Shown one piece after another: positions 2,913-37,377 of a stretch of DNA of 49,390 bases. The notes under the pieces are model-generated. The model did no database searches. It saw nothing but the letters and a program-made list of their open reading frames with translations, and was not told the DNA's origin. How positions within the stretch are numbered: position 1 is the stretch's first letter; the number at the start of each line of letters is the position of its first letter. Origin of the DNA: Gammaproteobacteria bacterium (GTDB lineage: Bacteria > Pseudomonadota > Gammaproteobacteria > Xanthomonadales > Xanthomonadaceae); contig JANXUD010000079.1 of the NCBI GenBank assembly GCA_025352045.1, positions 1 to 49,390 on the forward strand, given 5' to 3'. Both the position numbers and the translations under genes were made by a program.

Positions 2913-2925
2913 GTAGTTTAACTAC
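2913..2925. promoter_or_regulatory. Palindromic operator GTAGTTTAACTAC (site 1, amylase side)
   Basis: The 13-bp sequence is a perfect palindrome around a single central T/A base. It is the best example of a motif that recurs at 3033, 23523, 23620, 37280 and 37365, always upstream of glucan-utilisation genes. Odd-length palindromes of this kind are typical of LacI-family regulators; assignment to a MalR-like repressor is inference. It overlaps a candidate -10 hexamer of the leftward amylase promoter, which fits repression. Confidence 0.75.
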
Positions 2926-2942
2926 ATAACACCCTGCGACAA
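2915..2942 (-). promoter_or_regulatory. Candidate promoter of the amylase-glucokinase unit
   Basis: Read leftward there is a TTGTCG -35-like hexamer (2942-2937), a 16-bp spacer and TAAACT (2920-2915) as -10. The -10 lies inside operator site 1. Match to consensus is only moderate and no start-site data are available. Confidence 0.3.
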
Positions 2943-3020
2943 GGGTCCAGGCCCCGAAACGCCGGCATCGGCATGCGACTTAAGGGCGTCAGGCCAGCCC
3001 CGGAGCCGAAAAAAAACGGT

Positions 3021-3048
3021 TTGACAACATATCTAGTTTTAATACAAC
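3021..3048 (+). promoter_or_regulatory. Promoter of the TonB-dependent receptor gene
   Basis: A perfect -35 TTGACA (3021-3026) is followed by a 16-bp spacer and TACAAC (3043-3048) as -10, with an A/T-rich tract just upstream (3010-3016). The expected start is near 3055, giving a leader of about 80 nt before the GTG at 3136. Operator site 2 sits within the spacer and touches the -10, the classic position for repression. Confidence 0.55.
3033..3045. promoter_or_regulatory. Degenerate palindromic operator CTAGTTTTAATAC (site 2, receptor side)
   Basis: It matches GTAGTTTAACTAC at 10 of 13 positions and lies between the -35 and -10 of the receptor promoter. Its centre is 120 bp from that of site 1. 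The position makes it credible despite three mismatches; binding is inferred. Confidence 0.5.
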
Positions 3049-3135
3049 ATCCGCCCGAGCGTTCGCTCTAAAACGCCCGACTCCCGGCCCTGCAGCGCCG
3101 GCGCGGACACAAGAATCCAACGGGGAGAGTCATTC

Positions 3136-5955
3136 GTGGGCAATACCAGCAAGACTGCGGCCGGGGCCAAGCGGCCCGCTCTGAAGCACAACCCACTGGC
3201 GCTTGCTTGCGCCGCCGCCTTCCTGCTCGCCGGCAACGCCGCGTACGCACAGGCGACCGCGGCACCGGCCACGCCGAGCACCACGGCCGCCGACGACGCC
3301 AAGCTGACGCCGGAACAGCGCGCAGCCAAGGCGCACGCCGAGCAAGTCAAGAAGCTCGAGAACGTCAAGGTCGTCGGTATCCGTACCGGCATCGAGAACG
3401 CGATCAATACCAAGCAGGAAGCGACTTCGATCGTCGAGTCCGTGTCCGCCGAGGACATCGGCAAGCTGCCCGACTCGTCCATCGCCGAGTCGATCGCCCG
3501 CCTGCCCGGCCTGACCGCCCAGCGTGAGCGCGGCCGCGCCACCCAGATCCAGATCCGCGGCTTTGCCGGCGACTTCGCGGGCACCACGCTCAACGGTCGC
3601 GAGCAGGTCACGATGGCCGAGAACCGCGGCGTCGAGTTCGACCAGTACCCGTCCGAGCTGCTGAGCCAGGTGGTGGTCTACAAGACCCCCGACGCCTCGC
3701 TGGTCGGCCAGGGCCTGTCCGGCACCGTGGACCTGAAGACCGTGCGCCCGCTGGACTTCGCCAAGCGCGTGGCCTCGGTCAACTTCCGCGGCGACCAGAA
3801 CGAGAACAACGGCGACAAGGTGTTCGGCAACCGCTACAGCTTCGCCTACATCGACCAGTTCAGCGACCATCGCTTCGGCATCGCGATCGGCTACGCGCAC
3901 CTGGACAGCCCGAACCCGGGCTTCCAGAACGAGAGCTGGGGCTACGCGGACGGTCCGGCCGGCACCAAGGTCTCCGGCGGCGGCAAGGTCTACCACTTCG
4001 ACGGCAACAACAAGCGTGACGGCTGGCTGAGCACGATCCAGTTCAAGCCGAACGACTTCTACGAAGGCACGGTCGACATCTTCTATTCGAAGTACAAGAA
4101 GACCGAAGTCAAGTCGGGCATCGAGTTCGGCACGCAGTGGGGCCAGGGCATCCTGCAGCCCGGCTACACCGTCGCCGGCAACCACACCATCACCAACAGC
4201 GACTGGACCAACGTGCTGCCGGTCGTGCGCATGGACAGCAACCCGATCAGCGACGAGCTGGGTTCCTTCGGCTTCAACAACATGTTCCATTTCAGCGAGA
4301 ACTGGGACGCGTCGTTCGACTACAGCTATTCGTTCGCCAACCGGAAGCAGCGCTTCCTCGAGACCTACGCCCAGCTCAAGAACAACAACGGCACCACCAC
4401 CCTGGGCTACGACCTGGATCCGAGCGGCCAGTTCTACAACATGACCTTCGGCGCGGATTTCAACGATCCGTCGCAGCTGGTGCTGCATGACACCTGGGGC
4501 CAGTCCGGCTACCTGAAGGACTTCAGCTTCAAGGACAAGATGCACAGCTTCCGCGGCGACGCCACGCGCCATTTCGACTCGAACGTGTTCAGCAGCCTCG
4601 AGTTCGGCCTGAACTTCACCAAGCGCGACAAGTCCAAGGGCTCCGACGAACACAAGCTGTGCATCGCCACCTGCAGCCCGAACGACAACGCGCCGTTCCC
4701 GGGCAGCCCGGGCGCCTTCGGCGTCGGCGGCATCGACGGCCTGGCCGTGTTCGACGCGAACGCGCTGTACCAGTCCGGCTTCTACCACGCGATCGGAAAC
4801 CCGAACAAGGACATCGCCAACAAGAACTACGCGGTCCACGAGAAGATCACGACCTTCTACACGCAGCTCAACATCGACACCGATGTCGGCACCATGCCGC
4901 TGCGCGGCAACGTGGGTTTCCAGTACGTGGCTGCGGACCAGAAGTCGGAAGGCTTCGCGACCTATTCGGGCAATCCGGATGGCACCCTGCGCGAGGATGG
5001 CGCCAAGTACCACAACTTCCTGCCCAGCCTGAACCTCAGCCTGGGCCTGCCGTGGGACAGCTATGTCCGCTTCGCCGCGGCGCGCCAGATGGCCCGTCCG
5101 CGCCTGGACGACATGCGCGCCAACTTCGACGTCGGCATCAGCAACAGCTCCGGCTGCGGCGGCCTGACTGGCGTGCGCTGGTGCGGTGGCGGCGGCAACC
5201 CGCTGCTGCGGCCGTGGGTGGCCAACGCCTATGACCTCAGCTTCGAGAAGTACTTCACCACCGAAGCCGGCAACAAGGGCTACGTGGCGGCGGCCTACTT
5301 CTACAAGGACCTGCTGAGCTACATCTACCGTACCGACGTCGCGTTCGACTACGCCAATTCGCCGCTGCCCCCGATCGCATCGGGACAGGTCGTCGGCGTG
5401 TCCTACCCGGCCACCACCTTTGGCTCGATCAACCAACCCTTCAATGGCCAGGGTGGCTCGATCAAGGGCACGGAGTTCACCATCTCGGTGCCCCTGGACG
5501 TGATCTGGGGCGGCTTGAACGGCTTTGGTATCCAGGGCAGCTACTCAGATACCAAGAGCCAGATCCATCCGAATGGTCCCGGCACGACCGACCAGTTGCC
5601 CGGCTTGTCCAAGTACGTGTCCAACGTGACGGCGTACTACGAGAAGTACGGCTTCTCGGTGCGCTACAGCCGCCGCACCCGTTCGGCCTTCCGCGGCGAG
5701 ACCCGCGGTGGCGCGACGCCGGGCGCGGACCTGCAGTTCATCGACATCCAGCCGGAAGTCGTGCAGGACGCCCAGGTCAACTACAGCTTCCAGCCAGGCA
5801 CCTTCCTCGAAGGCCTGTCGCTGTACCTGCAGATGAGCAACCTCGGCGACCAGCCCTTCCGCACCGCCGACAACGCGGACGCTGCGAACCGGCCGATCCA
5901 GTACTTCGAGTACGGCAAGACCACGCTGCTCGGATTCAGCTACAAGTTCCAGTAA
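3136..5955 (+). CDS. TonB-dependent outer-membrane receptor, maltodextrin-type (MalA-like)
   Basis: 939 aa and complete. The GTG start at 3136 is chosen because GGGGAGAG lies at 3122-3129. A signal peptide ends near residue 38 (AAYA-QA). A Gln/Lys-rich linker and a TonB-box-like VKVVGIR near residue 78 follow. The plug domain (about 95-220) holds SIAESIARLPGL, IQIRGF and LNGREQ. The rest is the beta-barrel, ending in a C-terminal aromatic-rich strand (LGFSYKFQ). Family members import oligosaccharides or siderophores through the outer membrane using TonB energy. Maltodextrin as substrate is inferred from the divergent amylase, the MalEFGK operon and the shared operators. It is followed by an intrinsic terminator, so it is monocistronic. 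A truncated relative lies at 47744-49147. Confidence 0.93.
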   Translation: MGNTSKTAAGAKRPALKHNPLALACAAAFLLAGNAAYAQATAAPATPSTTAADDAKLTPEQRAAKAHAEQVKKLENVKVVGIRTGIENAINTKQEATSIVESVSAEDIGKLPDSSIAESIARLPGLTAQRERGRATQIQIRGFAGDFAGTTLNGREQVTMAENRGVEFDQYPSELLSQVVVYKTPDASLVGQGLSGTVDLKTVRPLDFAKRVASVNFRGDQNENNGDKVFGNRYSFAYIDQFSDHRFGIAIGYAHLDSPNPGFQNESWGYADGPAGTKVSGGGKVYHFDGNNKRDGWLSTIQFKPNDFYEGTVDIFYSKYKKTEVKSGIEFGTQWGQGILQPGYTVAGNHTITNSDWTNVLPVVRMDSNPISDELGSFGFNNMFHFSENWDASFDYSYSFANRKQRFLETYAQLKNNNGTTTLGYDLDPSGQFYNMTFGADFNDPSQLVLHDTWGQSGYLKDFSFKDKMHSFRGDATRHFDSNVFSSLEFGLNFTKRDKSKGSDEHKLCIATCSPNDNAPFPGSPGAFGVGGIDGLAVFDANALYQSGFYHAIGNPNKDIANKNYAVHEKITTFYTQLNIDTDVGTMPLRGNVGFQYVAADQKSEGFATYSGNPDGTLREDGAKYHNFLPSLNLSLGLPWDSYVRFAAARQMARPRLDDMRANFDVGISNSSGCGGLTGVRWCGGGGNPLLRPWVANAYDLSFEKYFTTEAGNKGYVAAAYFYKDLLSYIYRTDVAFDYANSPLPPIASGQVVGVSYPATTFGSINQPFNGQGGSIKGTEFTISVPLDVIWGGLNGFGIQGSYSDTKSQIHPNGPGTTDQLPGLSKYVSNVTAYYEKYGFSVRYSRRTRSAFRGETRGGATPGADLQFIDIQPEVVQDAQVNYSFQPGTFLEGLSLYLQMSNLGDQPFRTADNADAANRPIQYFEYGKTTLLGFSYKFQ

Positions 5956-5991
5956 GACCGCGGCCGGCGGCAACGCCGGCCCGCTTCCGAA

Positions 5992-6026
5992 CCCCTGGCG
6001 CCCTCCCCGGTCGCCAGGGGTTTTTC
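5992..6026 (+). terminator. Intrinsic terminator of the TonB receptor gene
   Basis: A 9-bp perfect stem CCCCTGGCG (5992-6000) / CGCCAGGGG (6012-6020), an 11-nt loop and a TTTTTCTTT tract follow the receptor stop codon by 37 bp. Confidence 0.92.
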
Positions 6027-6034
6027 TTTGCCAT

Positions 6035-6100: not shown

Positions 6101-6101
6101 G

Positions 6102-7619: not shown

Positions 7620-7684
7620 CGTTTCTGCCTTGTTTTCGTGTCTCCGAAGTCTAGCATCGGCCCTGCTCTGGTATCGTTGCGCGC

Positions 7685-18636: not shown

Positions 18637-18656
18637 CGATGCTCCATGCGGTCCCG

Positions 18657-19547: not shown

Positions 19548-19561
19548 GGCTTAGCTGCCCC

Positions 19562-21130: not shown

Positions 21131-22373
21131 TTGACGCGCATCCGCGCGGCGGCGCCGTCGAGCGCGGCCTTGGGCGACTGGCGGCCATTGGTGATCGCCT
21201 CGAGCGCGGCGTCCACGGCGGTGAAGAACTTGCCGGTGTCGGGGATGTTCGGGATCGGTTCACCCATGCGCGCGTTTTCCATCGTCGCGCGGATGTTCGG
21301 GTCGGCCGCCAGCTCGGCATAGAAGGCCTTGTTCGCCGGCGTGCCCAGCGGGACGTCGGCGTTGATCGTCTTCAGGCTGTCGACGCGCAGCAGGTAGTGC
21401 TCGATGAATTCGCGGGCGATGTCCTTGACCTGGCTGGGGGCGGCGATCATGCAGCCGAGCACGCCGACGAAGGGCTTGGACGGGTGGCCATCCACGCTCG
21501 GGATCGGTGCGACGCCTAAGTCGATGTGCGCGCGTTTGGCGTTGTCCCAGGCCCAGGGCCCGGAGATCATCATCGCGATCTGGCCGCGGCTGAAGGCGCC
21601 CTCCATCTCCGCGTAGCCAGCGCCCTTGGTGATCTGGCCGTTGCGCACGAGGTTGCCGAGCACTTCGGCGCCACGCACCGCGCCTGGCGTGTTGACGCCG
21701 ATGTCCGCCACGTCATAGTTGCCCTTGGCGTCCTTGCCGAAGATGTAGCCACCGCCGGCGGCAAGCATCGGGAAGCTGAAGAAGCTCTTGTTGTAGTCCC
21801 AGAGGATGGCCTTCTTGCCTTGCCTTGCCAGCTTGGCGTCGAGCGCGATGACTTCGTCGAAGCTGGCCGGCGGGACCGGCACCAGGGCCTTGTTGTAGAT
21901 CAGGCCAATGGATTCAATGGCAAGCGGATAGCCCCAGGTCTTGCCATTGTATTGAAACGCCTTCCAGGCCGACGCGTCGATGTCGTCGATGATCTTCTTC
22001 CCCGGATGCACGGGAACCACCAGCCCCGAGCGCGCCCACTCGCCGACGCGGTCGTGCGGCCAGCAGAAGATGTCGGGGCCCTTGCCGGCGCCGCTGGAGC
22101 TCTGGAACTTGTCGGGCGCGCCTTCGGGATGCTGCACCGTCACCTGCACGCCGGATTCGGCGGCGAACGTGTCGCCGACCTTCTGCAGGCCGTTGTAGCC
22201 CTTGTCGCCATTGATCCAGACCAGCAGCTTGAGCGGCCCCTTGGCCTGGGCCGGCGCCGGCGCCGCCAGGGCGGCAACGCAGGCCATCGCCACCGTGGCC
22301 AGCGCGTGGCGCAAGCCCGTGCACGCGCCCGCGCCCGCGCGCCCAGTCGCGCCGACCGCGGACACCGCGGGGC

Positions 22374-22377
<4 letters not shown>
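21127..22377 (-). CDS. malE: Periplasmic maltose/maltodextrin-binding protein
   Basis: 416 aa. A long signal peptide ends near residue 45 (APAQA-K). The mature protein closely follows E. coli MalE landmarks: LLVWINGDKGYNGL, GPDIFCWPHDRVGEWA, SIGLIYNKAL, ISGPWAWDN, PSKPFVGVLGCMIAA and ATMENARMGEPIPNIP, so orthology is secure rather than just family-level. It delivers maltose and maltodextrins to MalFGK. The GTG start overlaps the malK stop and the stop overlaps the malF start, so the three genes are tightly coupled. Confidence 0.97.
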
Positions 22378-23498
<1,121 letters not shown>

Positions 23499-23522: not shown

Positions 23523-23535
23523 GTAGTTTAACGAC
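23523..23535. promoter_or_regulatory. Palindromic operator GTAGTTTAACGAC (site 3, malK side)
   Basis: It matches site 1 at 12 of 13 positions and lies only 25 bp before the malK ATG, so it probably overlaps or follows the transcription start. It is 97 bp centre-to-centre from site 4 on the glgP side. Confidence 0.75.
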
Positions 23536-23610: not shown

Positions 23611-23641
23611 CCGGGGCACGTAATTAAACTACATGCCCCGG
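23611..23641. promoter_or_regulatory. Extended 31-bp palindrome containing operator GTAATTAAACTAC (site 4, glgP side)
   Basis: The core at 23620-23632 matches the motif at 12 of 13 positions. It is flanked by CCGGGGCA (23611-23618) and TGCCCCGG (23634-23641), so 13 of 15 base pairs around the centre at 23626 are complementary. The flanks are unique to this copy. It lies where the -35 of the glgP promoter would be expected, which allows either repression or a second protein binding the outer arms. Confidence 0.7.
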
Positions 23642-23723: not shown

Positions 23724-26216
23724 GTGAACACCAAGACAATCCCTGATTCCAATTTGGCCGCGTCCGATCCGGTGCCCTCCGGCGGCACCGGCACGCCAGC
23801 CCAGGCCGACCTCGCGCGCGCCTTCGCCGATGCCCTGGCCCAGGAACTGGCCCAGTCCAGCCTCGGCCCGACCCGCGATGCCTGCCTGCGCGCCGCCGAG
23901 GTGGCCTGCCGCCAGTTGCTGGAACGCCGCTGGGTCGCGACCCAGGCCCGCGACCGCCGCCTACTGGACGCCGGCCAGGCGCGCCGAGTGCACTACCTGT
24001 CCATGGAATTCCTGATGGGCCGGGCCCTGGGCAATGCCCTGGCGGCCCTCGGCCTGGATGCGACCCTGCGCGATGCGCTGGTTGCCCTGGGCCGTGATCC
24101 GGCCTCCGTGCTCGACCTCGAACACGACGCCGCGCTGGGCAATGGCGGCCTGGGCCGGCTCGCCGCCTGCTTCCTGGATTCCTTCGCCGAGCTCGGACTG
24201 CCCAGCTTCGGCTACGGCCTGCGCTATCGCTACGGCATGTTCGCGCAGGGCGTGCAGGACGGCCGCCAGGTCGAATCGCCCGACGACTGGATGCGCGGCG
24301 GCAATCCCTGGGACGTGCCGCGGCCGGACATCGCCTTCAAGGTCGGCTTTGGCGGCCGCGTGGTGGACGAAGCCGGCAGCCGGCGCTGGATCCCGGCCGA
24401 GCGGCTGCGTGCGGCGGCGTTCGATTTCATCGTGCCGGCGCACCATGGCGAGTCGGTGTCCACGCTGCGGCAATGGGAAGCCAGCGCCGAGCAGCCGCTG
24501 GATTTCGCGGCTTTCAGCCACGGCGACCTGCAGCTGGCCGCCAAACACCAGGTCGCCGCGGATTCGCTGAACTGGGTGCTCTACCCCGACGACAGCACCG
24601 ATGCCGGCCGCGAATTGCGGCTCAAGCAGGAAGCCTTCCTGGTCAGCGCCTCGCTGCAGGACCAGATCGCTCGCCACCGACGTGAACATGGCAACGTTCA
24701 CGACTTCGGTAGGCGCAATGCAATTCACTTGAACGACACCCACCCCGCCCTCGCGCCCGCAGAGTTGATGCGCCTGCTCGTGGACGAGCAGGGCGTGGCC
24801 TGGGACGAGGCCTGGACGATCACCCGACAGGCGGTGAGCTACACCAACCACACCCTGATGCCCGAGGCGCTCGAGACCTGGCCGCTGCGCCTGTTCGAAC
24901 AGCTGCTGCCGCGGCACCTGGAGATCATCTTCGAGATCAACGCCCGCCTGCTGGCCGACGTGCGCGCGCGTTTCCCCGGCGACGAGGGCCTGGCCTCGCG
25001 CGCCTCGCTGATCGACGAATCCGGCGAGCGCCGCGTGCGCATGGCCGCGCTGGCGATCGTCGCCTCGCACAAGGTCAATGGCGTGTCGGCCCTGCACTCG
25101 GACCTGATGGTGAAGACCATCTTCGCAGACTACGCGCGCTTGTTCCCCGACCGCTTCTGCAATGTCACCAACGGCGTCACGCCGCGACGCTGGCTGCAGC
25201 AGGCCAATCCGGCGCTGTCGTCGTTGCTGGACGCGCGCATCGGCACGGGCTGGCGGCGCAACCTCGATGAACTCGAGAAGCTGCACCCGTTTGCCGACGA
25301 TGCCGGCTTCGGCGTTGCGCTGATGGCCGCCAAGCGCCAGAACAAGCAGCGCCTCGCGGCTCTGGTGCGGCGCGAACTCGGCCTGTCCATCGACCCGGAC
25401 AGCCTGTTCGACGTGCAGGCCAAGCGCATCCACGAATACAAGCGCCAGTTGCTCAACCTGCTGCACGTGGTGGCGCGCTACCAGGCGATCGTGGCCGATC
25501 CGTCGCGCCCGGTGGTGCCGCGCACGGTGATCCTGGCCGGCAAGGCCGCCTCGGCCTATTTCTCCGCGAAGCTCATCATCCGCCTCGCCCACGACATCGC
25601 GCGCGTGGTCAATGCCGACCCGCGCGCGGCCGGCAAGCTGAAGCTGGTCTTCCTGCCCAACTACGGCGTCAGCCTGGCCGAGACCATCGTGCCCGCGGCC
25701 GACCTGAGCGAGCAGATCTCCACCGCCGGCACCGAGGCCTCGGGCACCGGCAACATGAAGTTCGCCATGAACGGCGCGCTGACCATCGGCACCTGGGACG
25801 GCGCCAACATCGAGATGGCCGAAGCGATGGGCCCGGAGAACATGTTCGTGTTCGGCCTGCGCACCGAGGCGGTGCGCGAGGTGAAGGCCCTGGGTTACGA
25901 CCCGCGCCTGCACGTGGAGGAAAACCGGGTGCTGCGCGATGTCATCGGGGCCATCGCCGGCGGCGCCTTCTCGCCCCAGGACGAGGACCGTTACCAGCCG
26001 CTGACCGACAGCCTGCTGCAGCAGGACAATTACCTGCTGCTGGCCGACTTCGACGCCTACATGCAGGCGCAGGCGCAAGTGGACGCGCTGTATGCCGATC
26101 CGGCGGCCTGGGCGCGCTGCGCCACGCTGAACATCGCCGGCATGGGCCGCTTCTCGGCCGACCGCACCGTGGCCGAGTACCGCGACACCATCTGGGCGCC
26201 GCCCGCGGGCCGCTGA
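23724..26216 (+). CDS. glgP: Glycogen/maltodextrin phosphorylase
   Basis: 830 aa from GTG 23724 (MNTKTIPDSN); an upstream TTG would start before the likely transcription start. GT35 landmarks: ALGNGGLGRLAACFLDS, GYGLRYRYGMF, the PLP lysine K679 in SGTGNMKFAMNG, and GTWDGANIEM. It releases glucose 1-phosphate from alpha-1,4-glucan chains. It heads the cluster glgP-glgB-glgX-malQ-oxidoreductase-MATE, and glgB begins 22 bp after its stop. Because it lies opposite malK across a shared operator pair, its in vivo substrate is probably imported maltodextrin as well as glycogen; sequence alone does not separate GlgP from MalP. Confidence 0.95.
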   Translation: MNTKTIPDSNLAASDPVPSGGTGTPAQADLARAFADALAQELAQSSLGPTRDACLRAAEVACRQLLERRWVATQARDRRLLDAGQARRVHYLSMEFLMGRALGNALAALGLDATLRDALVALGRDPASVLDLEHDAALGNGGLGRLAACFLDSFAELGLPSFGYGLRYRYGMFAQGVQDGRQVESPDDWMRGGNPWDVPRPDIAFKVGFGGRVVDEAGSRRWIPAERLRAAAFDFIVPAHHGESVSTLRQWEASAEQPLDFAAFSHGDLQLAAKHQVAADSLNWVLYPDDSTDAGRELRLKQEAFLVSASLQDQIARHRREHGNVHDFGRRNAIHLNDTHPALAPAELMRLLVDEQGVAWDEAWTITRQAVSYTNHTLMPEALETWPLRLFEQLLPRHLEIIFEINARLLADVRARFPGDEGLASRASLIDESGERRVRMAALAIVASHKVNGVSALHSDLMVKTIFADYARLFPDRFCNVTNGVTPRRWLQQANPALSSLLDARIGTGWRRNLDELEKLHPFADDAGFGVALMAAKRQNKQRLAALVRRELGLSIDPDSLFDVQAKRIHEYKRQLLNLLHVVARYQAIVADPSRPVVPRTVILAGKAASAYFSAKLIIRLAHDIARVVNADPRAAGKLKLVFLPNYGVSLAETIVPAADLSEQISTAGTEASGTGNMKFAMNGALTIGTWDGANIEMAEAMGPENMFVFGLRTEAVREVKALGYDPRLHVEENRVLRDVIGAIAGGAFSPQDEDRYQPLTDSLLQQDNYLLLADFDAYMQAQAQVDALYADPAAWARCATLNIAGMGRFSADRTVAEYRDTIWAPPAGR

Positions 26217-26238
26217 TGGAACGCACGGCGGCAGCGAC

Positions 26239-28443
26239 GTGGCTGCGCGCCATCCGGTGCAGGTCGTGATCGCCCCGCGCGTGGTGGCGGCCCTGGTGGG
26301 CGGCCGCCACGCCGATCCCTTCGCCGTGCTCGGCCTGCACCCCGATGCCGACGGCCGGCTGTGGGCCCGCGCACTGTTGCCGCAGGCCGAGTCGGTCATC
26401 CTGCTCGACGCAGGCAGTGGCGCCGAACTGGTCGCGCTGGAAAGCCGCCACGCAGACGGACTGTTCGAGGCGCGGGTGCCGCGCCGGCGCAAGCCCTTCG
26501 ACTACCGCCTGCGCGTGCGCTGGAGTGATGGCGGCACGCAGGATCTGGCGGATGCCTATTCGTTCTGGCCACAGCTCGACGACGACGCACTGGCCGCCCT
26601 TCGCGATGGCCGCCATCCGCGGCCCTACACCGTGCTCGGCGCGCACCTGCGCACGGTCGCCGGCGTGGCTGGCGTGCGCTTCGCGGTCTGGGCACCGAAT
26701 GCGCGGCGGGTGAGCGTGGTCGGCGAGTTCAATGCCTGGGATGGCCGCCGCCACGCGATGCGCCTGCGCCATGTCGCCGGCGTCTGGGAAATCTTCGTGC
26801 CCCACGCCGGTGTAGGCGACCGCTACAAGTACGAACTGGTCGGCGCGGATGGCGCGCTGCTGCCGCTCAAGTCCGACCCCTATGCCTTCGCCAGCGAACT
26901 GCGCCCGGCGACCGCCAGCCGCGTCGCCGCGCTGCCGCCTGCGCGCCCGTTGCCGGAAGGGCGCGCAGGCGCCAATGCGCGCGCCGCGCCGATCGCCATC
27001 TACGAAGTGCACGCTGCGTCGTGGCGGCGCGGCGCAGACGGCGGCTTCCCCGACTGGGCGCAGCTGGCGGCGACCCTGCCGGACTACGCCGCGTCGCTGG
27101 GATTCACCCATGTGCAGTTGATGCCGGTGAGCGAGCATCCCTTCGATGGCTCCTGGGGCTACCAGGCCCTGGGCCTGTACGCGCTCAGCGCGCGCTTTGG
27201 CGATGCCGCCGGCTTCGACGGCTTCGTCGCGGCCTGCCACGCGCGCGGACTTGGTGTGCTGCTCGACTGGGTGCCCGCGCATTTTCCCTCCGACGCGCAC
27301 GGGCTGGCCCGGTTCGACGGCAGCGCCCTGTACGAATACGCCGACCCGCGCGAGGGCTACCACCAGGATTGGGACACGCTGATCTTCAACTTCGCCCGCA
27401 GCGAGGTGCGCGACTACCTCGCCGGCAATGCCCTGTACTGGCCCGAACGCCACGGCGTGGACGGCCTGCGCGTGGATGCGGTGGCATCGATGCTCTACCG
27501 CGACTACTCGCGCAAGGCTGGCGAGTGGATCCCGAATGCGCAGGGCGGACGGGAAAACCTGGAGGCCATCTCGCTGCTCCGGCGCGTCAACGAAACGCTT
27601 GGCGCCGACGCGCCCGGCGTGATTACGCTGGCGGAGGAATCCACCGCCTTCCCGGGCGTTTCCGCGCCAACCAGCGCCGGCGGCCTGGGCTTCCACTACA
27701 AATGGAACATGGGCTGGATGAACGACACCCTGGCCTACATGCACGAGGACCCGGTGCATCGCCGCTGGCACCACGAGCGCATGTCGTTCGGCCTGGTCTA
27801 TGCGTTCTCGGAGAATTTCGTGCTGCCGCTGTCGCACGACGAAGTGGTGCACGGCAAGGGCTCGCTGCTGGGCAAGATGCCGGGCGACGACTGGCAGCGC
27901 TTCGCCAACCTGCGCGCCTACTACGGTTTCATGTGGGGGCACCCAGGCAAGAAGTTGCTGTTCATGGGCCAGGAATTCGCCCAACTCGGCGAGTGGAACC
28001 ACGATGCCGCCCTGCCCTGGTCGCTGCTGGGCGATGCGCGCCACGCGGGCGTGCAACGCCTGGTCGGCGACCTCAATCGCCTGTACGCGGCCACGCCTGC
28101 CCTGCACGCGCTCGATTGCGAGCCGGCGGGCTTCGAGTGGCTGGTCGCCGACGATGCCGCGCAGTCGGTATTCGCCTGGCTGCGCCGCGATGGCGCGGGC
28201 GGCGTCGCGCTGGTTGCGAGCAATTTCACTCCGGAGCCCCGCCCCGCCTACCGGATCGGCGTCCCCGACCGTCCGGCGCGCTGGTGCGTGGGGCTGGATA
28301 CCGATTCCGGAAGCTATGGCGGAAGTAGCTACGCCGCGTCGGTAGCGGACATCACCGTGCAGGCCGTTCCGGCCCATGGCCATGCGCAGTCGATCACCCT
28401 CGACCTGCCGCCGCTGGCAACCGTTTTCCTCCTGCCCGCCTGA
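26239..28443 (+). CDS. glgB: 1,4-alpha-glucan branching enzyme
   Basis: 734 aa, GTG start. Two N-terminal CBM48-like domains (about 20-110 and 125-230) precede the GH13 barrel, the layout of E. coli-type GlgB. Catalytic residues: D413 in GLRVDAVASM, E466 in LAEEST, D534 in LSHDEVVHG. The stretch YSRKAGEWIPNAQGGREN is also typical of branching enzymes. It cuts an alpha-1,4 chain and rejoins it by an alpha-1,6 bond to make branches. It is second in the glgP operon. No in-frame ATG lies upstream; the ATG overlapping the glgP stop is in another frame and closes after 17 codons. Confidence 0.95.
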   Translation: MAARHPVQVVIAPRVVAALVGGRHADPFAVLGLHPDADGRLWARALLPQAESVILLDAGSGAELVALESRHADGLFEARVPRRRKPFDYRLRVRWSDGGTQDLADAYSFWPQLDDDALAALRDGRHPRPYTVLGAHLRTVAGVAGVRFAVWAPNARRVSVVGEFNAWDGRRHAMRLRHVAGVWEIFVPHAGVGDRYKYELVGADGALLPLKSDPYAFASELRPATASRVAALPPARPLPEGRAGANARAAPIAIYEVHAASWRRGADGGFPDWAQLAATLPDYAASLGFTHVQLMPVSEHPFDGSWGYQALGLYALSARFGDAAGFDGFVAACHARGLGVLLDWVPAHFPSDAHGLARFDGSALYEYADPREGYHQDWDTLIFNFARSEVRDYLAGNALYWPERHGVDGLRVDAVASMLYRDYSRKAGEWIPNAQGGRENLEAISLLRRVNETLGADAPGVITLAEESTAFPGVSAPTSAGGLGFHYKWNMGWMNDTLAYMHEDPVHRRWHHERMSFGLVYAFSENFVLPLSHDEVVHGKGSLLGKMPGDDWQRFANLRAYYGFMWGHPGKKLLFMGQEFAQLGEWNHDAALPWSLLGDARHAGVQRLVGDLNRLYAATPALHALDCEPAGFEWLVADDAAQSVFAWLRRDGAGGVALVASNFTPEPRPAYRIGVPDRPARWCVGLDTDSGSYGGSSYAASVADITVQAVPAHGHAQSITLDLPPLATVFLLPA

Positions 28444-28471
28444 ACCCCGCTTCGGGTACCTTGCCTTCCTC

Positions 28472-30712
28472 ATGAACCCAGCCCCGGCCAACGCCCTCCC
28501 GCCCGTCCTCCTGCTCGCTCCCGGGCGACCGCATCCGATGGGCGCGCAGGCGCGGGATGGCGGCGTCAACATCGCGGTGTTCTCCGAGCATGCCGAGCAT
28601 CTCGAGCTGTGCCTGTTCGATGCGCGGGGCCAGGTCGAACTGGGACGCTACCGCCTGGACGGACCGCACGACGGCATCTTCTGCGGCTTCCTCCCGGGCG
28701 CCGGCCCGGGCCTGGTGTATGGCTTGCGCGCCTACGGCCCGCATCGCCCCGAAGCCGGGTTGCTGTTCAATCCGGACAAGCTGCTGCTCGATCCCTGCGC
28801 ACGCCAGATCGTCGGCCACTTCCGCTGGGATGCCTTGCAGCATGGCTATCCGCTCGACGATCCGCAGGGACTGCGCGTGCTCGATCCGCGCGACAACGCG
28901 GCGATCGCACTGAAGGCACGCGTCCCGGTGCCGGCGGCGCCCGCCGACGAGGCGGCGACGGCGGCCGCGCCGCCGCGCATCGCCGACGCCGACGTGGTGC
29001 TGTACGAGATGCACGTGAAGGGCTTCACGATGCGCCTCCCCGGCATCCCCGACGCGCTGCGCGGCACCTACGCCGCGCTGGCGCATCCGGCCGCGATCGC
29101 GCATTTCAAGGCACTCGGCATCACCACCCTGTCCCTGCTGCCGGTGCAGTACGCGGTGGACGAAGAGCACCTGGTCGAGCGCGGCCTGGTCAACTACTGG
29201 GGTTACAACACGCTGGGTTTCTTCTGCCCCGATCCGCGCCTGTCGCTGACGCCGCATGATCCCGACGCCACCGCTGCCGAGTTCCGCGCCATGGTGGACG
29301 CCCTGCACGCCGCCGGCCTGGAGGTGGTGCTGGACGTGGTCTACAACCACACGCCCGAAGGCAGCGAGCTGGGGCCGACCATGAGCTTCCGCGGCCTCGA
29401 CAACTCCAGCTGGTACCGGCTGATGCGCGACGACCGCAGCCGCTGCGAAAACCTCAGCGGCTGCGGCAATACGCTGAACGTCGCGCATCCCAAGGTCACG
29501 CAATTCGTGCTCGACTCCCTGCGCTACTGGGTCGGCACGATGGGCGTGGACGGCTTCCGCTTCGACCTGGCGCCGGTACTGGGGCGCAACCAGTACGGCT
29601 TCGATCCGAACGCCCCCTTCTTCACCGCGCTGCGCCAGGACCCGGTGCTGGCGCGCGCCCGCATGATCGCCGAGCCCTGGGATGCCGGCCCGAACGGCTA
29701 CCAGGTCGGGCGCTTCCCGGGCCGGTTCCTGGAATGGAACGACAAGTTCCGCGATGCGATGCGCGGCTACTGGCTGCGCCGCGGCGTGGACCGCGGCGAG
29801 TTCGCGCGCCGCTTCATCGCCTCCGACGACCTGTTCCACCATGACCAAAGGCGCCCGACCGCCTCCGTCAACTTCATCGCCGTGCACGACGGCTTCACGC
29901 TGGCCGATGTCGTCTCGTACGCGCGAAAGCACAATCTCGCCAACGGCGAGGACAACCGCGATGGCCGCGACGAGGAACTCAGCGCCAACTTCGGCGTCGA
30001 GGGACCCGCTTCCGATGCATCGATCACTGCCCTGCGCCTGCGCGTGCGCCGCGCGATGCTGGCAAGCCTGCTGCTGGCCCAGGGCACCCCGATGCTGTGC
30101 GCGGGCGACGAGTTCGGCAACAGCCAGCAGGGCAACAACAACGCCTATTGCCAGGACAACGCCACCGGCTGGCTCGACTGGCCGGCCGCGGAAGCCGACA
30201 CGCAGCGCTTCGTATCCGAGGTGCTGGCGCTGCGGCATGGCGAAGTATTGCTGCGCCATGACCGCTGGTTCGTCCCCGAGGCGCGCGCGGCGGGCGCCGC
30301 GAGCATCGCCTGGCGCGCCCCGGGCGGCGGTGCGCTCGGCGTCCACGACTGGCATGACGCGACCGAGCACGCGCTGGCCTGCGTGCTCTCGCCGGCGTCG
30401 GCGGTCGCCAGTGTCGCGGCGGCACCCGCCGTATCGCGCTTCGACGACGCCGCCGACACCGATGCGGGCGATGCCGGCGACGACGCCGACGACGACCCGA
30501 CCGACGACGCGCGCGGTGCAAGCCGCCTGATGCTGCTGTTCAACCCCGAAGCCGCGCCGCGCGAATTCCTCCTGCCGCCGGGTCGTTGGCAACTCGCGCT
30601 CGACAGCAGCGCCACCCTGGCACCCAGCTTCATGGCCACGGGCGGCAGCGTGGATGCACCCGCGCATGCCCTCGTCGTGCTGCGCCAATCCGCCTTTTCC
30701 ATTCCGGACTGA
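28472..30712 (+). CDS. glgX: Glycogen debranching enzyme
   Basis: 746 aa from ATG 28472, 28 bp after glgB. A CBM48 domain is at about 25-120 and a GH13_11 isoamylase-type barrel follows: VVYNHTPEGSELGP, D365 in GVDGFRFDLAPVLGR, E401 in MIAEPWDAG, and VHDGFTLADVVSY. It hydrolyses alpha-1,6 branches of phosphorylase-limit dextrin to release short maltodextrins for MalQ. Odd: between about residues 655 and 683 the C-terminal beta domain contains an Ala/Asp-rich low-complexity insert (runs such as DAGDAGDDADDDPTDD) not expected in GlgX. The reading frame stays open across it and the downstream strand LMLLFNPEA is normal. Confidence 0.95.
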   Translation: MNPAPANALPPVLLLAPGRPHPMGAQARDGGVNIAVFSEHAEHLELCLFDARGQVELGRYRLDGPHDGIFCGFLPGAGPGLVYGLRAYGPHRPEAGLLFNPDKLLLDPCARQIVGHFRWDALQHGYPLDDPQGLRVLDPRDNAAIALKARVPVPAAPADEAATAAAPPRIADADVVLYEMHVKGFTMRLPGIPDALRGTYAALAHPAAIAHFKALGITTLSLLPVQYAVDEEHLVERGLVNYWGYNTLGFFCPDPRLSLTPHDPDATAAEFRAMVDALHAAGLEVVLDVVYNHTPEGSELGPTMSFRGLDNSSWYRLMRDDRSRCENLSGCGNTLNVAHPKVTQFVLDSLRYWVGTMGVDGFRFDLAPVLGRNQYGFDPNAPFFTALRQDPVLARARMIAEPWDAGPNGYQVGRFPGRFLEWNDKFRDAMRGYWLRRGVDRGEFARRFIASDDLFHHDQRRPTASVNFIAVHDGFTLADVVSYARKHNLANGEDNRDGRDEELSANFGVEGPASDASITALRLRVRRAMLASLLLAQGTPMLCAGDEFGNSQQGNNNAYCQDNATGWLDWPAAEADTQRFVSEVLALRHGEVLLRHDRWFVPEARAAGAASIAWRAPGGGALGVHDWHDATEHALACVLSPASAVASVAAAPAVSRFDDAADTDAGDAGDDADDDPTDDARGASRLMLLFNPEAAPREFLLPPGRWQLALDSSATLAPSFMATGGSVDAPAHALVVLRQSAFSIPD

Positions 30713-30716
30713 TCCC

Positions 30717-32225
30717 ATGGACCTCGACCGCCGCAGCGCCGGCGTGCTCCTGCACGTCACCTCCCTCCCCGGCCCGAATGGCCTGGGCGATTTCGGCCCC
30801 GCGGCCTACGGTTTCATCGACTGGCTGGCCTCGGCGGGGCAACGCCTGTGGCAATGGCTGCCGAGCACGCCGATCGGCCCCGGCGATTCGCCCTACCAGG
30901 GCGTGTCGGCGTTCGCCGGCAGCCAGTGGATGGTTGCGTTCGAGCCGCTGGTGGAGCGCGGCTGGCTGGCAGCTCCGACGCAGCCGGACGGCGGCTTCGA
31001 TGCTCGCCGCGTGGACTACGGCCGCGTGCTGCCCTGGCGCGAAATCCAGTTGCGCGCCGCGGCGCAGGGCTTCAGCAGCCACGCCACCGCGGGCGAACGC
31101 GCAGCCTACGCGGACTGGTGCGCGCAGCAGGCGCACTGGTTGCCCGACTACGCCTTGTTCATGGCGATCCGCTCGCCGCGCGGCGGCCAACCCTGGTGGG
31201 ACTGGCCGGCCGAACTCAAGCGCCGCGAGCCGGCGGCCATCGCGCGCGTACGCGCGGACTGCGCGGCGGAAATCGAATTCTGGCAGTTCGTGCAGTGGTG
31301 CTTCGCCTGGCAGTGCGAGGCCCTGCGCGCCCATGCCCGGGCCAGCGACGTCGCCATCGTCGGCGACCTGCCGATCTTCGTCGCGCACGACAGCGCCGAC
31401 TGCTGGGCGCGGCCGGACCTGTACTTCCTCGACGACGACTTCCTGTGCACGGTCGTGGCCGGCGTGCCGCCCGACGAACTCGGCCCCGACGGCCAGCGCT
31501 GGGGCAATCCGCTATACCGCTGGGACCGCATGGCCGACGAGGGCTTCGCCTGGTGGACGGCGCGGGTCAAGCGCGCGCTCGACTCGGCCGACATCGTGCG
31601 CATCGACCATTTCCGCGGCTTCGCCGGCTATTACGAGATCCCCGCCAGTTCGCCCACCGCCAAGGAAGGGCGCTGGGTGCCGGCCCCGGGCATGGCGCTG
31701 TTCGCGGCGATCGCGCGCGAGCTCGGTCCGCTGCCGATCATCGCCGAGGACCTGGGACTGATCACGCCCGACGTGATCGAGCTGCGCGAGGCCTATGACT
31801 ACCCGGGCATGAAGATCCTGCAGTTCGCCTTCAATGGCGACGGCAACCACGAGTTCCTGCCGCACGCCTATCCGCGGCGCACCATCGTCTATACCGGCAC
31901 GCACGACAACGAGACCGTGCGTGGCTGGTGGGCCGGCGCGTCCGGGCGCGAGCGACGGTTCGCGGGGCTGTACCTGGATGCGGACGAATCGAACGTGCAC
32001 TGGAAGATGATGCAGGCGGCCTGCAACTCGGTCGCGGCGATGGCGCTGTACCCGATGCAGGACGTGCTTGGCCTGGATGGCAGCCACCGCATGAACCGCC
32101 CGGGCCATGGCGAGGGCAACTGGGCCTGGCGCTTCGACTGGACCATGGTGGACGCCGGCCTGGCATCGCGCCTGGGTGCGCTGGCCGCGACCAGCGGACG
32201 CGGTCCCTTCGTGTTGCCGCAGTGA
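30717..32225 (+). CDS. malQ: 4-alpha-glucanotransferase (amylomaltase)
   Basis: 502 aa from ATG 30717, only 4 bp after glgX. It is a GH77 enzyme of the shorter amylomaltase type, without the N-terminal extension of E. coli MalQ. Motifs: RSAGVLLHVTSLPGP, GDSPYQ, nucleophile D297 in VRIDHFRGF, acid/base E344 in IAEDLG, and D397 in THDNETVRGW. It disproportionates maltodextrins, releasing glucose and longer chains that GlgP can use. Released glucose would need the glucokinases encoded at the left edge and at 41702. Confidence 0.96.
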   Translation: MDLDRRSAGVLLHVTSLPGPNGLGDFGPAAYGFIDWLASAGQRLWQWLPSTPIGPGDSPYQGVSAFAGSQWMVAFEPLVERGWLAAPTQPDGGFDARRVDYGRVLPWREIQLRAAAQGFSSHATAGERAAYADWCAQQAHWLPDYALFMAIRSPRGGQPWWDWPAELKRREPAAIARVRADCAAEIEFWQFVQWCFAWQCEALRAHARASDVAIVGDLPIFVAHDSADCWARPDLYFLDDDFLCTVVAGVPPDELGPDGQRWGNPLYRWDRMADEGFAWWTARVKRALDSADIVRIDHFRGFAGYYEIPASSPTAKEGRWVPAPGMALFAAIARELGPLPIIAEDLGLITPDVIELREAYDYPGMKILQFAFNGDGNHEFLPHAYPRRTIVYTGTHDNETVRGWWAGASGRERRFAGLYLDADESNVHWKMMQAACNSVAAMALYPMQDVLGLDGSHRMNRPGHGEGNWAWRFDWTMVDAGLASRLGALAATSGRGPFVLPQ

Positions 32226-33300: not shown

Positions 33301-33304
33301 GCCG

Positions 33305-34705: not shown

Positions 34706-34767
34706 ACTGCAGCCCCGGTCGCGCCCCGACGTGCCGGCCAGCGATTGACCTACCCTGGAGTATCCCA

Positions 34768-35607: not shown

Positions 35608-35640
35608 GCGCGCACCGCCGACAACCATCCCGCCTGCGCC

Positions 35641-37263
35641 TCAGCGCGCGCCGGCGGGCACGACCGCGACGAAGACCTGCACCGTTTGCCCCGCCAGGCG
35701 GCGGGTTGCGCGGCCGTCGCGCGAGGCATCGAAGCCACCGGACGCCGTACCGGGAAACACCTGGCGGAAGTGCGCGCCTGGCGGCAGTGCGGCCACCTCG
35801 ATCCCCGCCTCGGCGAGGCCGTCATTGACGATCACCAGGCTGCGTTCGCGGCCTTCGCTTCGCTGGAACGCCGACACCTGCCCGGCGACCTGCGGTGACA
35901 GGTAGCTGCCGACCGACAGCGACGGATGGGCGTTGCGCACGCGCAGCAGGTCGCGGTACCAGGCGAGCAGGCCATCGGGACGCTGCGTTTCCGCAGCAAC
36001 ATTCTGCGTCGCGGCGTTCGCCGGCAGCGCGCGGAACGGCAGGGCGGTGCTGAAGGCGGCAGTGCGCGGATCGGCCGTCCAGGGCATGGGTGCGCGGACG
36101 CGGCTGTCGCCGTCCAGGTTCGCCGCCGCCATGCCTATCTCCTCGCCATACAGGATGAAGGGCGTGCCGGGCCGCAGCAGGTAACTCGCCGCGGCCAGCT
36201 TGTACTGGGCGATGTTGCCATCGAGCTGGTTCCAGGCGCGGTCACCGGCGAACAGGTCATGGTTGGACAGCATCGATGCCATGCCGGTCGGCGCGTCCAC
36301 GAAATAGTCGGCGACGCTGCGGATCGCCGCCGGGTCGCCGCGTGCCGCGTCGAACAGGGGCTTGCTCAGGTCCATCGCGAAGGCATTGCCGCACACCGCC
36401 GGCGACGCGTACTCGCGCTGCTGGTGCGTGGCCTCGCAGACGACATAGCGGTTGGGGTAGCTGTCCACCAGCGCACGCATTCGGCCCATCAGCGCCATGC
36501 TCTCGGGCTGGTCGCGCCAGTCCTTCGCGTCCTTTTCAAAAAGATGGGTCACCGCGTCGAAGCGGAAACCATCCACGCCGCGGTCGAGCCAGAAGCGCAG
36601 GTTCGCCGCATGGAAGGCCTCGACCGCGGGCTCGCGGAAATTGAAGTCCGGCATCGTTGGCGAGAACACATGGAAGTAGGCGCCGGTCGGCGTCATCGTC
36701 CAGGGATCGTGGCCCCAGATCGACCAGCCCGCGGGCGCGGCCTCGCTCCAGACATACCAGTTGCGGTACGGGCTGGTGCGATCGTGCAGGGCCTGCTGGA
36801 AATACGGATGCTCGGCCGCGCTGTGGTTGATGACGTAATCCATCACCACGCCCATGCCGCGCGCATGCGCCTGGCGCAGCAGCTCGTCGAAATCCGCCAT
36901 CGAACCGTAAGCAGGTTCGATGCCGCGGTAGTCGCTGGTCGCGTAGCCATGGTTGTGGTCCTGGCTGGCGGTAACGGGCATCAGCCACAGGCCGCGCACG
37001 CCCAGTGCCGCCAGGTAGTCCAGCGACTGGATGAGTCCGCGCAGGTCGCCAATGCCGTCGCCATCGCTATCCCGGTACGCGCGCACATAGATCTCGGCGA
37101 AGGCACCGCGCTGCCATCCCGCCGGGAGTGGTTGCAGCGACGACGCGGCGGCGGCTGCCCTGCCTGTCCGCATGGGCGCCTCCGCGCAGCCGGCAATCGC
37201 GAGCGCCGCGAGGAACAGTCCGGCCAGGAAGGGCCGCGGGGACACGAAAGGGCGACGCGACAT
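35641..37263 (-). CDS. GH13 alpha-amylase lipoprotein
   Basis: 540 aa from ATG 37263. The signal peptide ends in a lipobox LAIAGC (C26), so the enzyme is a membrane-anchored lipoprotein, unlike the other amylases here. GH13 residues: YVINHS at 143-148, D236 in GVDGFRFDAVTH, E277 in VVCEATH, D336 in MLSNHDLFAGDR. IYVRAYRDSDGDGIGDLRGL at 58-77 is typical of oligo-1,6-glucosidase/alpha-amylase types that act on maltodextrins. A longer in-frame reading extends upstream through operator DNA and is rejected. Operator site 5 lies 17 bp before the start codon. It is divergent from the pullulanase gene. Confidence 0.92.
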   Translation of the reverse strand: MSRRPFVSPRPFLAGLFLAALAIAGCAEAPMRTGRAAAAASSLQPLPAGWQRGAFAEIYVRAYRDSDGDGIGDLRGLIQSLDYLAALGVRGLWLMPVTASQDHNHGYATSDYRGIEPAYGSMADFDELLRQAHARGMGVVMDYVINHSAAEHPYFQQALHDRTSPYRNWYVWSEAAPAGWSIWGHDPWTMTPTGAYFHVFSPTMPDFNFREPAVEAFHAANLRFWLDRGVDGFRFDAVTHLFEKDAKDWRDQPESMALMGRMRALVDSYPNRYVVCEATHQQREYASPAVCGNAFAMDLSKPLFDAARGDPAAIRSVADYFVDAPTGMASMLSNHDLFAGDRAWNQLDGNIAQYKLAAASYLLRPGTPFILYGEEIGMAAANLDGDSRVRAPMPWTADPRTAAFSTALPFRALPANAATQNVAAETQRPDGLLAWYRDLLRVRNAHPSLSVGSYLSPQVAGQVSAFQRSEGRERSLVIVNDGLAEAGIEVAALPPGAHFRQVFPGTASGGFDASRDGRATRRLAGQTVQVFVAVVPAGAR

Positions 37264-37279
37264 GGGCTGTGGTCCCGCT

Positions 37280-37292
37280 GTAGATAAACTAC
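37280..37292. promoter_or_regulatory. Palindromic operator GTAGATAAACTAC (site 5, lipoprotein amylase side)
   Basis: It matches the inverse of site 1 (GTAGTTAAACTAC) at 12 of 13 positions and lies 17 bp before the leftward amylase ATG, so it probably covers the start of transcription. Its centre is 85 bp from that of site 6. Confidence 0.72.
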
Positions 37293-37364
37293 GGTAGAGC
37301 AGGCGGCGACGGGACGCAAAACCCGGCATTTGCAGGGCCAGAGCCGCTGCGCCACCGCAGTGAT

Positions 37365-37377
37365 GTAGTAAAGTTAC
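37365..37377. promoter_or_regulatory. Degenerate operator GTAGTAAAGTTAC (site 6, pullulanase side)
   Basis: It matches GTAGTTAAACTAC at 10 of 13 positions with intact outer GTA/TAC arms and ends 4 bp before the pullulanase ATG. A TAAAGT hexamer inside it (37369-37374) could be the -10 of a leaderless transcript. Confidence 0.5.

What the first reader, a model, noticed from the sequence alone, without database searches (positions are those of the whole stretch)
2913..37377. Six copies of a 13-bp palindrome define a glucan regulon, two per divergent promoter
GTAGTTWAACTAC-type sites occur at 2913, 3033, 23523, 23620, 37280 and 37365 (13, 10, 12, 12, 12 and 10 matches of 13). They lie only in the three divergent gaps amylase/TonB receptor, malK/glgP and lipoprotein amylase/pulA, one near each gene start. 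None was seen before the ED operon, the A2M-pbpC pair, the AKR or the halogenase genes. This fits a LacI-family MalR-like regulator acting at both starts of each pair. The regulator is not encoded in the window.
Basis: partly seen in the sequence, partly recalled or inferred. Interest (0 to 1): 0.72.

Follow-up and report, generated by a model that had tools for sequence, protein, structure and literature searches.

The report
Glucokinase-fused repressor's starch regulon operators
Six short DNA palindromes in this bacterial genome are very probably switches for its starch- and glycogen-eating genes, run not by the expected maltose repressor but by a protein that fuses a glucose kinase to a DNA-binding sensor.

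Summary
All six sites are as described; in the same-genus genome G325 they keep 76 of 78 bases, the rest of the gaps 270 of 633. The LacI/MalR interpretation is not supported: the one LacI gene found lies in a beta-glucan-type locus. TGTAGT-N3-ACTACA is the 15-bp operator of the RpiR-family regulator RccR (PMC5489143). A matching regulator exists: a 641-aa glucokinase-HTH-SIS fusion whose first ~30 codons are window 92-1 (minus) and whose remainder is on a contig sharing 141 bp with the window's left end. Close relatives of this regulator and of MalF occur in the same two genomes in draws of 395. Of 79 Glk-HexR loci, nearly all betaproteobacterial, 58 carry the motif (<=2 mismatches) within 300 bp upstream, against 0-1 for scrambled palindromes. 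In four betaproteobacterial genomes 17 of 22 sites fall at Glk-HexR or alpha-glucan genes, including the same gaps. ED genes follow pulA tightly and probably share its operators. Ligand unproven: RccR's KDPG pocket is partly kept; glucose-6-phosphate is a bold alternative.

The parts
1..92 (-). First ~30 codons of the Glk-HexR fusion gene; it runs off the left edge into contig C52 (L089:8484-10409:-, 641 aa)
   Evidence: Exact 141-bp identity of the C52 end and the window start; translation; Glucokinase + HTH_6 + SIS domains; 81% identical to the G325 copy, which lies beside the same amylase gene
151..2826 (-). amyA: GH13 amylase with glucodextranase C-terminal module; probably transcribed with glk-hexR
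   Evidence: PF00128, PF09985
2913..2925 (.). operator O1, GTAGTTTAACTAC (13/13)
   Evidence: identical in G325
3033..3045 (.). operator O2, CTAGTTTTAATAC (10/13), directly behind a conserved TTGACA
   Evidence: 12/13 identical in G325, in a conserved TTGACAACATAT context
3136..5955 (+). TonB-dependent receptor (TonB-Xanth-Caul), probable maltodextrin receptor
   Evidence: PF07715; TIGR01782 564.5 bits, cut-off 310
17041..23498 (-). malK-malE-malF-malG-aglA (read right to left): maltose ABC transporter and GH13
23523..23535 (.). operator O3, GTAGTTTAACGAC (12/13), 24 bp before malK
   Evidence: identical in G325
23620..23632 (.). operator O4, GTAATTAAACTAC (12/13), 91 bp before glgP
   Evidence: one central change in G325
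23724..32225 (+). glgP, glgB, glgX-type GH13 and malQ in a row
37280..37292 (.). operator O5, GTAGATAAACTAC (12/13), 16 bp before the amyL start
   Evidence: identical in G325
37365..37377 (.). operator O6, GTAGTAAAGTTAC (10/13), 4 bp before the pulA start given by the ORF list
   Evidence: identical in G325
37382..40219 (+). pulA: pullulanase; start codon uncertain
   Evidence: PF17967, PF11852; TIGR02103 905.9 bits, cut-off 697.6; the G325 start appears further downstream of the site
40239..46083 (+). zwf-glk-pgl-edd-eda, beginning 19 bp behind pulA: probably one transcript with pulA
   Evidence: pgl and edd starts are mechanical ORF starts

Best explanation
The six palindromes are operators (TGTAGT-N3-ACTACA) of a glucokinase-fused RpiR-family regulator (Glk-HexR, HexR/RccR-like). 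It binds two sites in each divergent promoter and controls uptake and breakdown of alpha-glucan (TonB receptor, amylases, pullulanase, MalEFGK, GlgP/GlgB/GlgX/MalQ), its own gene (amyA-glk-hexR) and, through the pulA transcript, the Entner-Doudoroff genes. Most likely it represses in its free form and lets go when its SIS domain binds a sugar phosphate made from the imported glucan; the circuit would then sense flux through glucose phosphorylation or the ED path, not maltose itself. Shown by computation: sites, conservation, co-occurrence, co-location, operator type. Inferred: binding by this protein, sign of regulation, ligand, shared transcripts, looping between paired sites.
For: (1) Sites far above chance and conserved, 76/78 bases against 270/633 elsewhere in the aligned spans. 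(2) Sequence and half-site spacing equal the RccR 15-bp operator shown by SPR and DNase I footprinting, which also comes as two copies before aceE (PMC5489143). (3) The regulator gene begins in the window beside amyA and has RpiR HTH and SIS domains; its best solved sequence relatives in that part are 8ju9 and 8k3b, 8k3b being RccR with KDPG (PMC10810197). (4) MalF at E<=1e-60 and close Glk-HexR relatives each occur in 2 of 395 family genomes drawn, the same two, and both carry the sites. (5) 60 of 80 Glk-HexR loci (G325 among them) hold a <=1-mismatch site against 7, 1, 5, 0, 0, 2 for six scrambled palindromes; within 300 bp upstream of the fusion gene, <=2 mismatches in 58 of 79 against 0-1, <=1 mismatch in 23 of 79 against 0; close pairs in 48 of 80 against 0-6. 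(6) In four betaproteobacterial genomes 17 of 22 genome-wide <=1-mismatch sites lie at alpha-glucan or Glk-HexR genes, incl. glgP/malK and pulA/amyL; outside the Glk-HexR loci already used, 10 of 15. (7) Pieces around the glgP start of G007 and G014 and the pulA start of G002 and G010, same-genus genomes without an HTH_6 match, hold no 13-mer at <=3 mismatches.
Against: No binding or expression data. The G325 copy is below the curated cut-offs of NCBIfam NF010701 (793.9 of 920) and HexR PRK11302 (224 of 296). Four of seven checkable KDPG contacts of RccR are changed, and in RccR alanine at three of those positions (S139, H148, H164) abolished DNA binding, so ligand and allostery are not simply transferable. 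O2 and O6 are weak matches. The 80 loci are related by descent, the best 80 of 174, not independent. G325 also has a LacI gene next to Glk-HexR. At <=2 mismatches the motif is not enriched genome-wide in G000 (12 against 26) or G325 (7 against 73) over the reversed pattern, and at <=1 mismatch the 15-mer is rarer than the reversed pattern in all six genomes. None of the sites assigned in the betaproteobacterial genomes lies before zwf or edd, and zwf, edd and eda were each found in only 2 of 80 Glk-HexR loci.
Confidence: 0.87

Rival explanations
1. A LacI-family MalR-like repressor binds the sites and is released by maltose or maltodextrin.
For: LacI-family regulators commonly control maltose genes (recalled; MalR, MdxR, MalI named in PMC4052901). 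G325 has a LacI gene directly beside Glk-HexR.
Against: G000 has one LacI match, in a GH3/GH30/MFS locus without a 13-mer site. The G325 LacI gene is not detected in G000, yet all six sites are there. Its vicinity holds a different, CG-centred palindrome (TGTAACCGTTTTCA before lacI, TGAAATCGGTTACA before the next TonB receptor, TGTAAACGCTTACA before the 5424-6800 ORF); the one loose match in the window is at 13245, outside the three gaps. The lacI_G325 query matched 2 of 80 Glk-HexR loci, one being G325 itself.
Confidence: 0.05
2. A separate RpiR or other regulator encoded elsewhere uses these sites, and Glk-HexR is only linked.
For: RccR and HexR, two similar regulators in Pseudomonas, use different sites (PMC5489143), so paralogue specificity matters.
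Against: The fusion is the only HTH_6 match in G000. Sites lie within 300 bp upstream of the fusion gene in 58 of 79 loci at <=2 mismatches. Regulator and MalF are found in the same two genomes.
Confidence: 0.06
3. Chance palindromes or a non-regulatory repeat.
For: At <=2 mismatches genome-wide counts do not exceed the reversed control.
Against: Shuffles, footprint (Fisher p 1.5e-23), recurrence in the same gaps in other genomes.
Confidence: 0.01

Closest known systems
RccR of Pseudomonas (RpiR family; PMC5489143, PMC10810197)
   Same: 15-bp operator TGTAGT-N3-ACTACA, also in two copies before one promoter; HTH_6 + SIS type; 8k3b (RccR/KDPG) is among the two closest solved chains by sequence for the HTH-SIS part
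   Different: RccR is not reported as a fusion and acts on aceEF, glyoxylate shunt and gluconeogenesis; here the regulator is fused to glucokinase and the sites are at alpha-glucan genes; S139, H148, H164 and S188 of the KDPG pocket are replaced
HexR (E. coli YebK, Pseudomonas, Shewanella)
   Same: 36% identity to E. coli YebK over 280 aligned positions; ED genes are classic HexR targets (PMC5343134 passages) and follow pulA here
   Different: Pseudomonas HexR site is given as TTGT-N7-8-ACAA; no kinase in YebK; NCBIfam HexR cut-off not reached
Bifunctional transcriptional regulator/glucokinase (NCBIfam NF010701, PRK14101)
   Same: Same domain order, residues 8-589 aligned, 793.9 bits (G325 copy)
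   Different: Below the curated cut-off of 920; a maltodextrin regulon for such a fusion was not seen in the listings (some capped at 20 rows)
LacI-family MalR and the Xanthomonas maltose CUT locus (XCC2469 region; PMC1790865 passages)
   Same: Same pathway type: TonB receptor with alpha-glucan enzymes and a repressor gene described as a maltose transport gene repressor
   Different: Regulator family and operator differ from those found here; this locus has MalEFGK ABC uptake and GlgP

Membership tests
RpiR family of regulators | HTH_6 followed by a SIS domain | tested here: met
   PF01418 and PF01380 over their cut-offs in the fusion of G000 and G325
RccR/HexR-type operator class | TGTAGT-N3-ACTACA inverted repeat in target promoters | tested here: met
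   Six window sites with 1, 2, 1, 2, 2, 3 mismatches of 12; enriched at Glk-HexR loci
HexR (NCBIfam PRK11302 subfamily) | Score at or above the curated cut-off | tested here: not met
   224 bits against 296 (G325 copy)
Bifunctional glucokinase/regulator (NF010701) | Glucokinase-HTH-SIS in one chain | tested here: met
Bifunctional glucokinase/regulator (NF010701) | Score at or above the curated cut-off | tested here: not met
   793.9 bits against 920 (G325 copy); so not filed as a member of this equivalog
HexR/RccR as KDPG sensor | KDPG contact residues of RccR | tested here: inconclusive
   R152, S183, S185 kept; S139, H148, H164, S188 changed in G000 and G325; K270 and R277 lie outside the alignment
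LacI-family MalR | LacI HTH protein linked to the sites | tested here: not met
   One LacI match, in another locus without 13-mer sites
LacI-family MalR | Binds the sites and is released by maltose | not testable with these tools
   needs gel shift
Glk-HexR regulon | Direct binding and derepression | not testable with these tools
   needs purified protein and a mutant

The most novel reading that the evidence does not exclude
A clade of glucokinase-RpiR fusions, spread by horizontal transfer between betaproteobacteria and this gammaproteobacterial genus, runs the whole starch/glycogen regulon and senses the product of its own kinase domain (glucose-6-phosphate) instead of KDPG: an enzyme wired in one chain to its transcriptional sensor. 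The uniform swap of RccR positions S139 to Tyr/Phe, H148 to Phe/Leu/Tyr and H164 to Arg/Gln in the 82 Glk-HexR rows aligned (G325 counted twice) would be the mark of the new ligand.
Probability: 0.3. Interest if true: 0.75.

Novelty: new variant of a known kind. Interest (0 to 1): 0.58.

Why it matters
It replaces the expected maltose repressor with a kinase-fused central-carbon regulator, so that polymer capture outside the cell and the ED pathway inside would answer to one intracellular signal. It gives a testable function to a fusion protein that databases name but that the paper listings seen here do not link to maltodextrin genes. And because enzyme and sensor share one chain it poses a ready question: does the SIS domain read what the kinase makes?

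Tried and rejected
LacI hypothesis: tested by a LacI HMM in the genome and the genus and rejected. The exact palindrome occurs in 2 of 297 family genomes drawn, G000 and G193; the G193 locus (L037) was not examined, and this count says only that the exact 13-mer is rare. Same-genus genomes with glgP or pulA showed no site in the pieces held; the G001 piece lacks the gene start and is not counted. Larger stretches from G014, G028, G024, G002 and G020 were fetched but not analysed. Of the seven extra <=2-mismatch places in G000 one is taken, from recall, for a LexA box (C53:7156), some look coding by eye, and C28:80745 was not resolved. The Pseudomonas HexR consensus was compared by eye only. 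The JBC 2011 HexR paper is not held, so whether RegPrecise already lists a betaproteobacterial Glk-HexR maltose regulon could not be checked; this limits the novelty claim. Paper searches: of which I saw listings; papers opened: PMC4052901, PMC1790865, PMC5343134, PMC3223726, PMC5507952, PMC3840689 (passages only), PMC5489143 (passages and section 10), PMC10810197 (abstract, passages, section 23). The plasmid search with the HTH-SIS part found 630 records, none at 60% identity or more, and was not followed.

Limits of the controls. The betaproteobacterial set comes from one scan with two short peptide patterns, best 80 of 174 kept. The six control palindromes were hand-chosen rearrangements of the same half-site letters. 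In one search gene starts for loci with two tblastn pieces were set by hand. The aligned spans were set by hand and that of amyL/pulA runs to 37440, i.e. 59 bases past the pulA start. Site-to-gene assignment in the four betaproteobacterial genomes rests on tblastn with window proteins; of 22 sites 17 were assigned, one (G409:C11:766192) lies before a GH13 gene only 31-34% identical to the window glgX and was not counted, four had no window-protein match near them.
Full report
What was claimed. Six copies of a 13-bp palindrome, two in each of three divergent gaps, were read as a LacI/MalR regulon.

Observation. The six sites are where stated with the stated scores; 100 shuffles averaged 0.46 matches and never reached 8. 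The two other <=3-mismatch hits (4311, 14951) lie inside coding frames. In the 3.0-Mb assembly there are 5 places at <=1 mismatch: four of the six, plus C85:3684, which has a partner at 3791 and precedes an Oar-like TonB receptor. At <=2 mismatches 12 places stand against 26 for the reversed control: a small regulon and no genome-wide enrichment.

Conservation. MalF at E<=1e-60 occurs in 2 of 395 family genomes drawn, G000 and the same-genus G325 (78% identity; the contig matches record MGYJ01000067.1, Gammaproteobacteria bacterium RIFCSPHIGHO2_12_FULL_63_22). The window is largely collinear with contig C67 of G325, most aligned pieces at 72-81% DNA identity; G325 has about 4 kb more between pbpC and aglA, and its contig ends within edd. 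At <=2 mismatches four of the six sites are found in G325 directly, with three places elsewhere and 73 for the reversed control; the alignment shows the other two. 76 of 78 site positions are identical against 270 of 633 other aligned positions (Fisher p 1.5e-23; spans set by hand). O2 lies just behind a conserved TTGACA, so it probably sits inside the receptor promoter (inference).

Which regulator. LacI: one match in G000, among GH3, GH30, weakly matching GH2 and MFS genes, with no 13-mer at <=3 mismatches in 16 kb and three loose 15-mers. G325 has three LacI matches, one beside the locus; around that one lie CG-centred palindromes before lacI, before the next TonB receptor and before a further gene, a different operator, and the gene is not detected in G000. 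RpiR: the HTH_6 model gives strong matches (E about 2e-21) in G000 and G325 of 27 genus genomes; five weaker ones (E 5e-9 to 1.5e-7) lie in G017, G012, G003, G005 and once more in G325. In both strong cases the protein is a glucokinase-HTH_6-SIS fusion, 81% identical between the two. In G325 it follows amyA. In G000 contig C52 ends in the same 141 bases with which the window begins, so the gene starts at window 92 (minus) and leaves the window. A search with the HTH-SIS part over 395 family genomes found close relatives in G000 and G325 (E<1e-160); the other 11 matching genomes, all in one other genus, are at E 5e-32 to 6e-40.

Operator type. RccR, an RpiR-family regulator of Pseudomonas, binds TGTAGT-N3-ACTACA, shown by SPR and DNase I footprint, with two copies 68 bp apart before aceE (PMC5489143; passages and section 10 read). 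The window sites match this with 1, 2, 1, 2, 2 and 3 mismatches of 12.

Independent genomes. A scan of genome contigs with the two fusion proteins kept 80 loci of 174. One is G325; the others are titled as betaproteobacteria or members of Burkholderiales, except two 'Pseudomonadota' MAGs. 60 of 80 carry a <=1-mismatch 15-mer; six scrambled palindromes gave 7, 1, 5, 0, 0 and 2 of 80. Within 300 bp upstream of the fusion gene, 58 of 79 loci have a site at <=2 mismatches and 23 of 79 at <=1; the scrambled controls gave 0-1 and 0 (one locus lacks upstream DNA). Close pairs (40-200 bp) occur in 48 of 80 against 0-6. Neighbours by tblastn: TonB receptor in 57 of 80, halogenase (hal2) 28, amyA 22, aglA 16, malG 14, malK 13, malF 11, malE 8, amyL 6, pulA 5, zwf, edd and eda 2 each; several loci are short contigs. 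These loci are related by descent and not independent. Four whole genomes scanned at <=1 mismatch gave 22 sites: Roseateles violae 5, Roseateles toxinivorans 6, Rubrivivax rivuli 9, Rubrivivax gelatinosus 2 (the reversed pattern gave 11, 18, 12 and 7). Assigned to alpha-glucan or Glk-HexR genes: 4, 5, 6 and 2, i.e. 17 of 22. They include pairs in glgP/malK (87 bp apart in both Roseateles) and pulA/amyL (99 bp in R. rivuli), and single sites at glgX/malK, glgP, pulA/amyL and amyA/TBDR. Leaving out the seven inside the Glk-HexR loci already used, 10 of 15. None of the assigned sites was before zwf or edd.

ED operon. PulA stops at 40219, zwf has an ATG at 40239, glk (41702-42736, PF02685) overlaps the end of zwf, and by mechanical ORF starts edd overlaps pgl and eda begins at the end of edd. 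Most likely pulA-zwf-glk-pgl-edd-eda is one transcript under O5/O6 (inference). The genome would then have two glucokinase domains in this regulon, one free and one in the regulator.

Mechanism. Glucan is cut outside, taken up through the TonB receptor and MalEFGK, and degraded by GlgP, GlgX and MalQ to G1P and glucose; glucose is phosphorylated by Glk; G6P enters zwf-pgl-edd-eda (pathway knowledge, recalled). An RpiR repressor that leaves DNA on binding a sugar phosphate would make this a self-reinforcing switch (inference). For HexR and RccR the ligand is KDPG (PMC5489143, PMC10810197). Here the pocket is only partly kept: of seven checkable contacts R152, S183 and S185 are kept, while S139, H148, H164 and S188 become F, F, R and I. 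The swaps at S139, H148 and H164 run through the 82 Glk-HexR rows aligned, G325 being present twice. In RccR, alanine at S139, H148 or H164 abolished DNA binding, and R152, K270 and R277 were essential for KDPG binding (PMC10810197 section 23); K270 and R277 lie outside the alignment. So KDPG is possible but not favoured by the residues; G6P, product of the fused kinase, is an attractive alternative (inference).

Origin. In a tree of the HTH-SIS part rooted on E. coli HexR, G000 and G325 sit inside a betaproteobacterial group (support 0.83 for 10 rows, 0.99 for 19; the nearest branches are weak, 0.60 and 0.08). With the near absence in the family this suggests transfer from betaproteobacteria. 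Contamination of both assemblies cannot be fully excluded, but two separate assemblies carry the locus with 78% identical MalF.

Verdict. Observation confirmed; regulator reassigned from LacI/MalR to a glucokinase-fused RpiR (HexR/RccR-like) protein. New variant of a known kind. In the listings of the ten paper searches I saw no title or abstract that links such a fusion to maltodextrin genes, but some listings were capped and the main HexR comparative paper is not held here.

Noticed in passing
L008:3684-3803 (G000:C85): A further pair of sites (GTAGTTTGACTAC, CTAGTTTGAGTAC, 107 bp apart) before an Oar-like TonB receptor lying next to cell-wall genes (SLT_2, DPBB_1/SPOR, Peptidase_S11); the receptor is 65% identical to the one beside the LacI gene in G325. 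Possibly a distal regulon member.
   Followed up: partly
L077:5389, 17520, 18627 (G325:C67): CG-centred palindromes (TGTAAACGCTTACA, TGAAATCGGTTACA, TGTAACCGTTTTCA) before a gene whose G000 counterpart is GH1, a TonB receptor and lacI: looks like a separate local LacI regulon.
   Followed up: partly
window 6102-7703 (-) and 46130-47698 (-): Two tryptophan-halogenase-family genes, each near a TonB receptor gene; a relative of the second lies in 28 of 80 Glk-HexR loci. Their role beside glucan uptake is unexplained.
   Followed up: partly
window 37365-37382: Operator O6 ends 4 bp before the pulA start given by the ORF list, while the G325 gene seems to start further downstream: start codon or leader is unclear.
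   Followed up: partly
window 41702-42736 (+): A free-standing glucokinase in the ED operon besides the glucokinase domain of the regulator; many betaproteobacterial loci shown also have a second glk-like gene beside glk-hexR.
   Followed up: partly
window 1-141: The window's left end and contig C52's right end share exactly 141 bases, as expected of a k=141 assembly graph break (recalled).
   Followed up: yes
L037 (G193:C11:277996): The only other exact palindrome among 297 family genomes drawn; context not read.
   Followed up: no
L012:1501 (G000:C53:7156): TTAGTAGTATTACTACTAA, a probable LexA box (recalled motif); the same 13-base core is at C78:16305 in G325.
   Followed up: no
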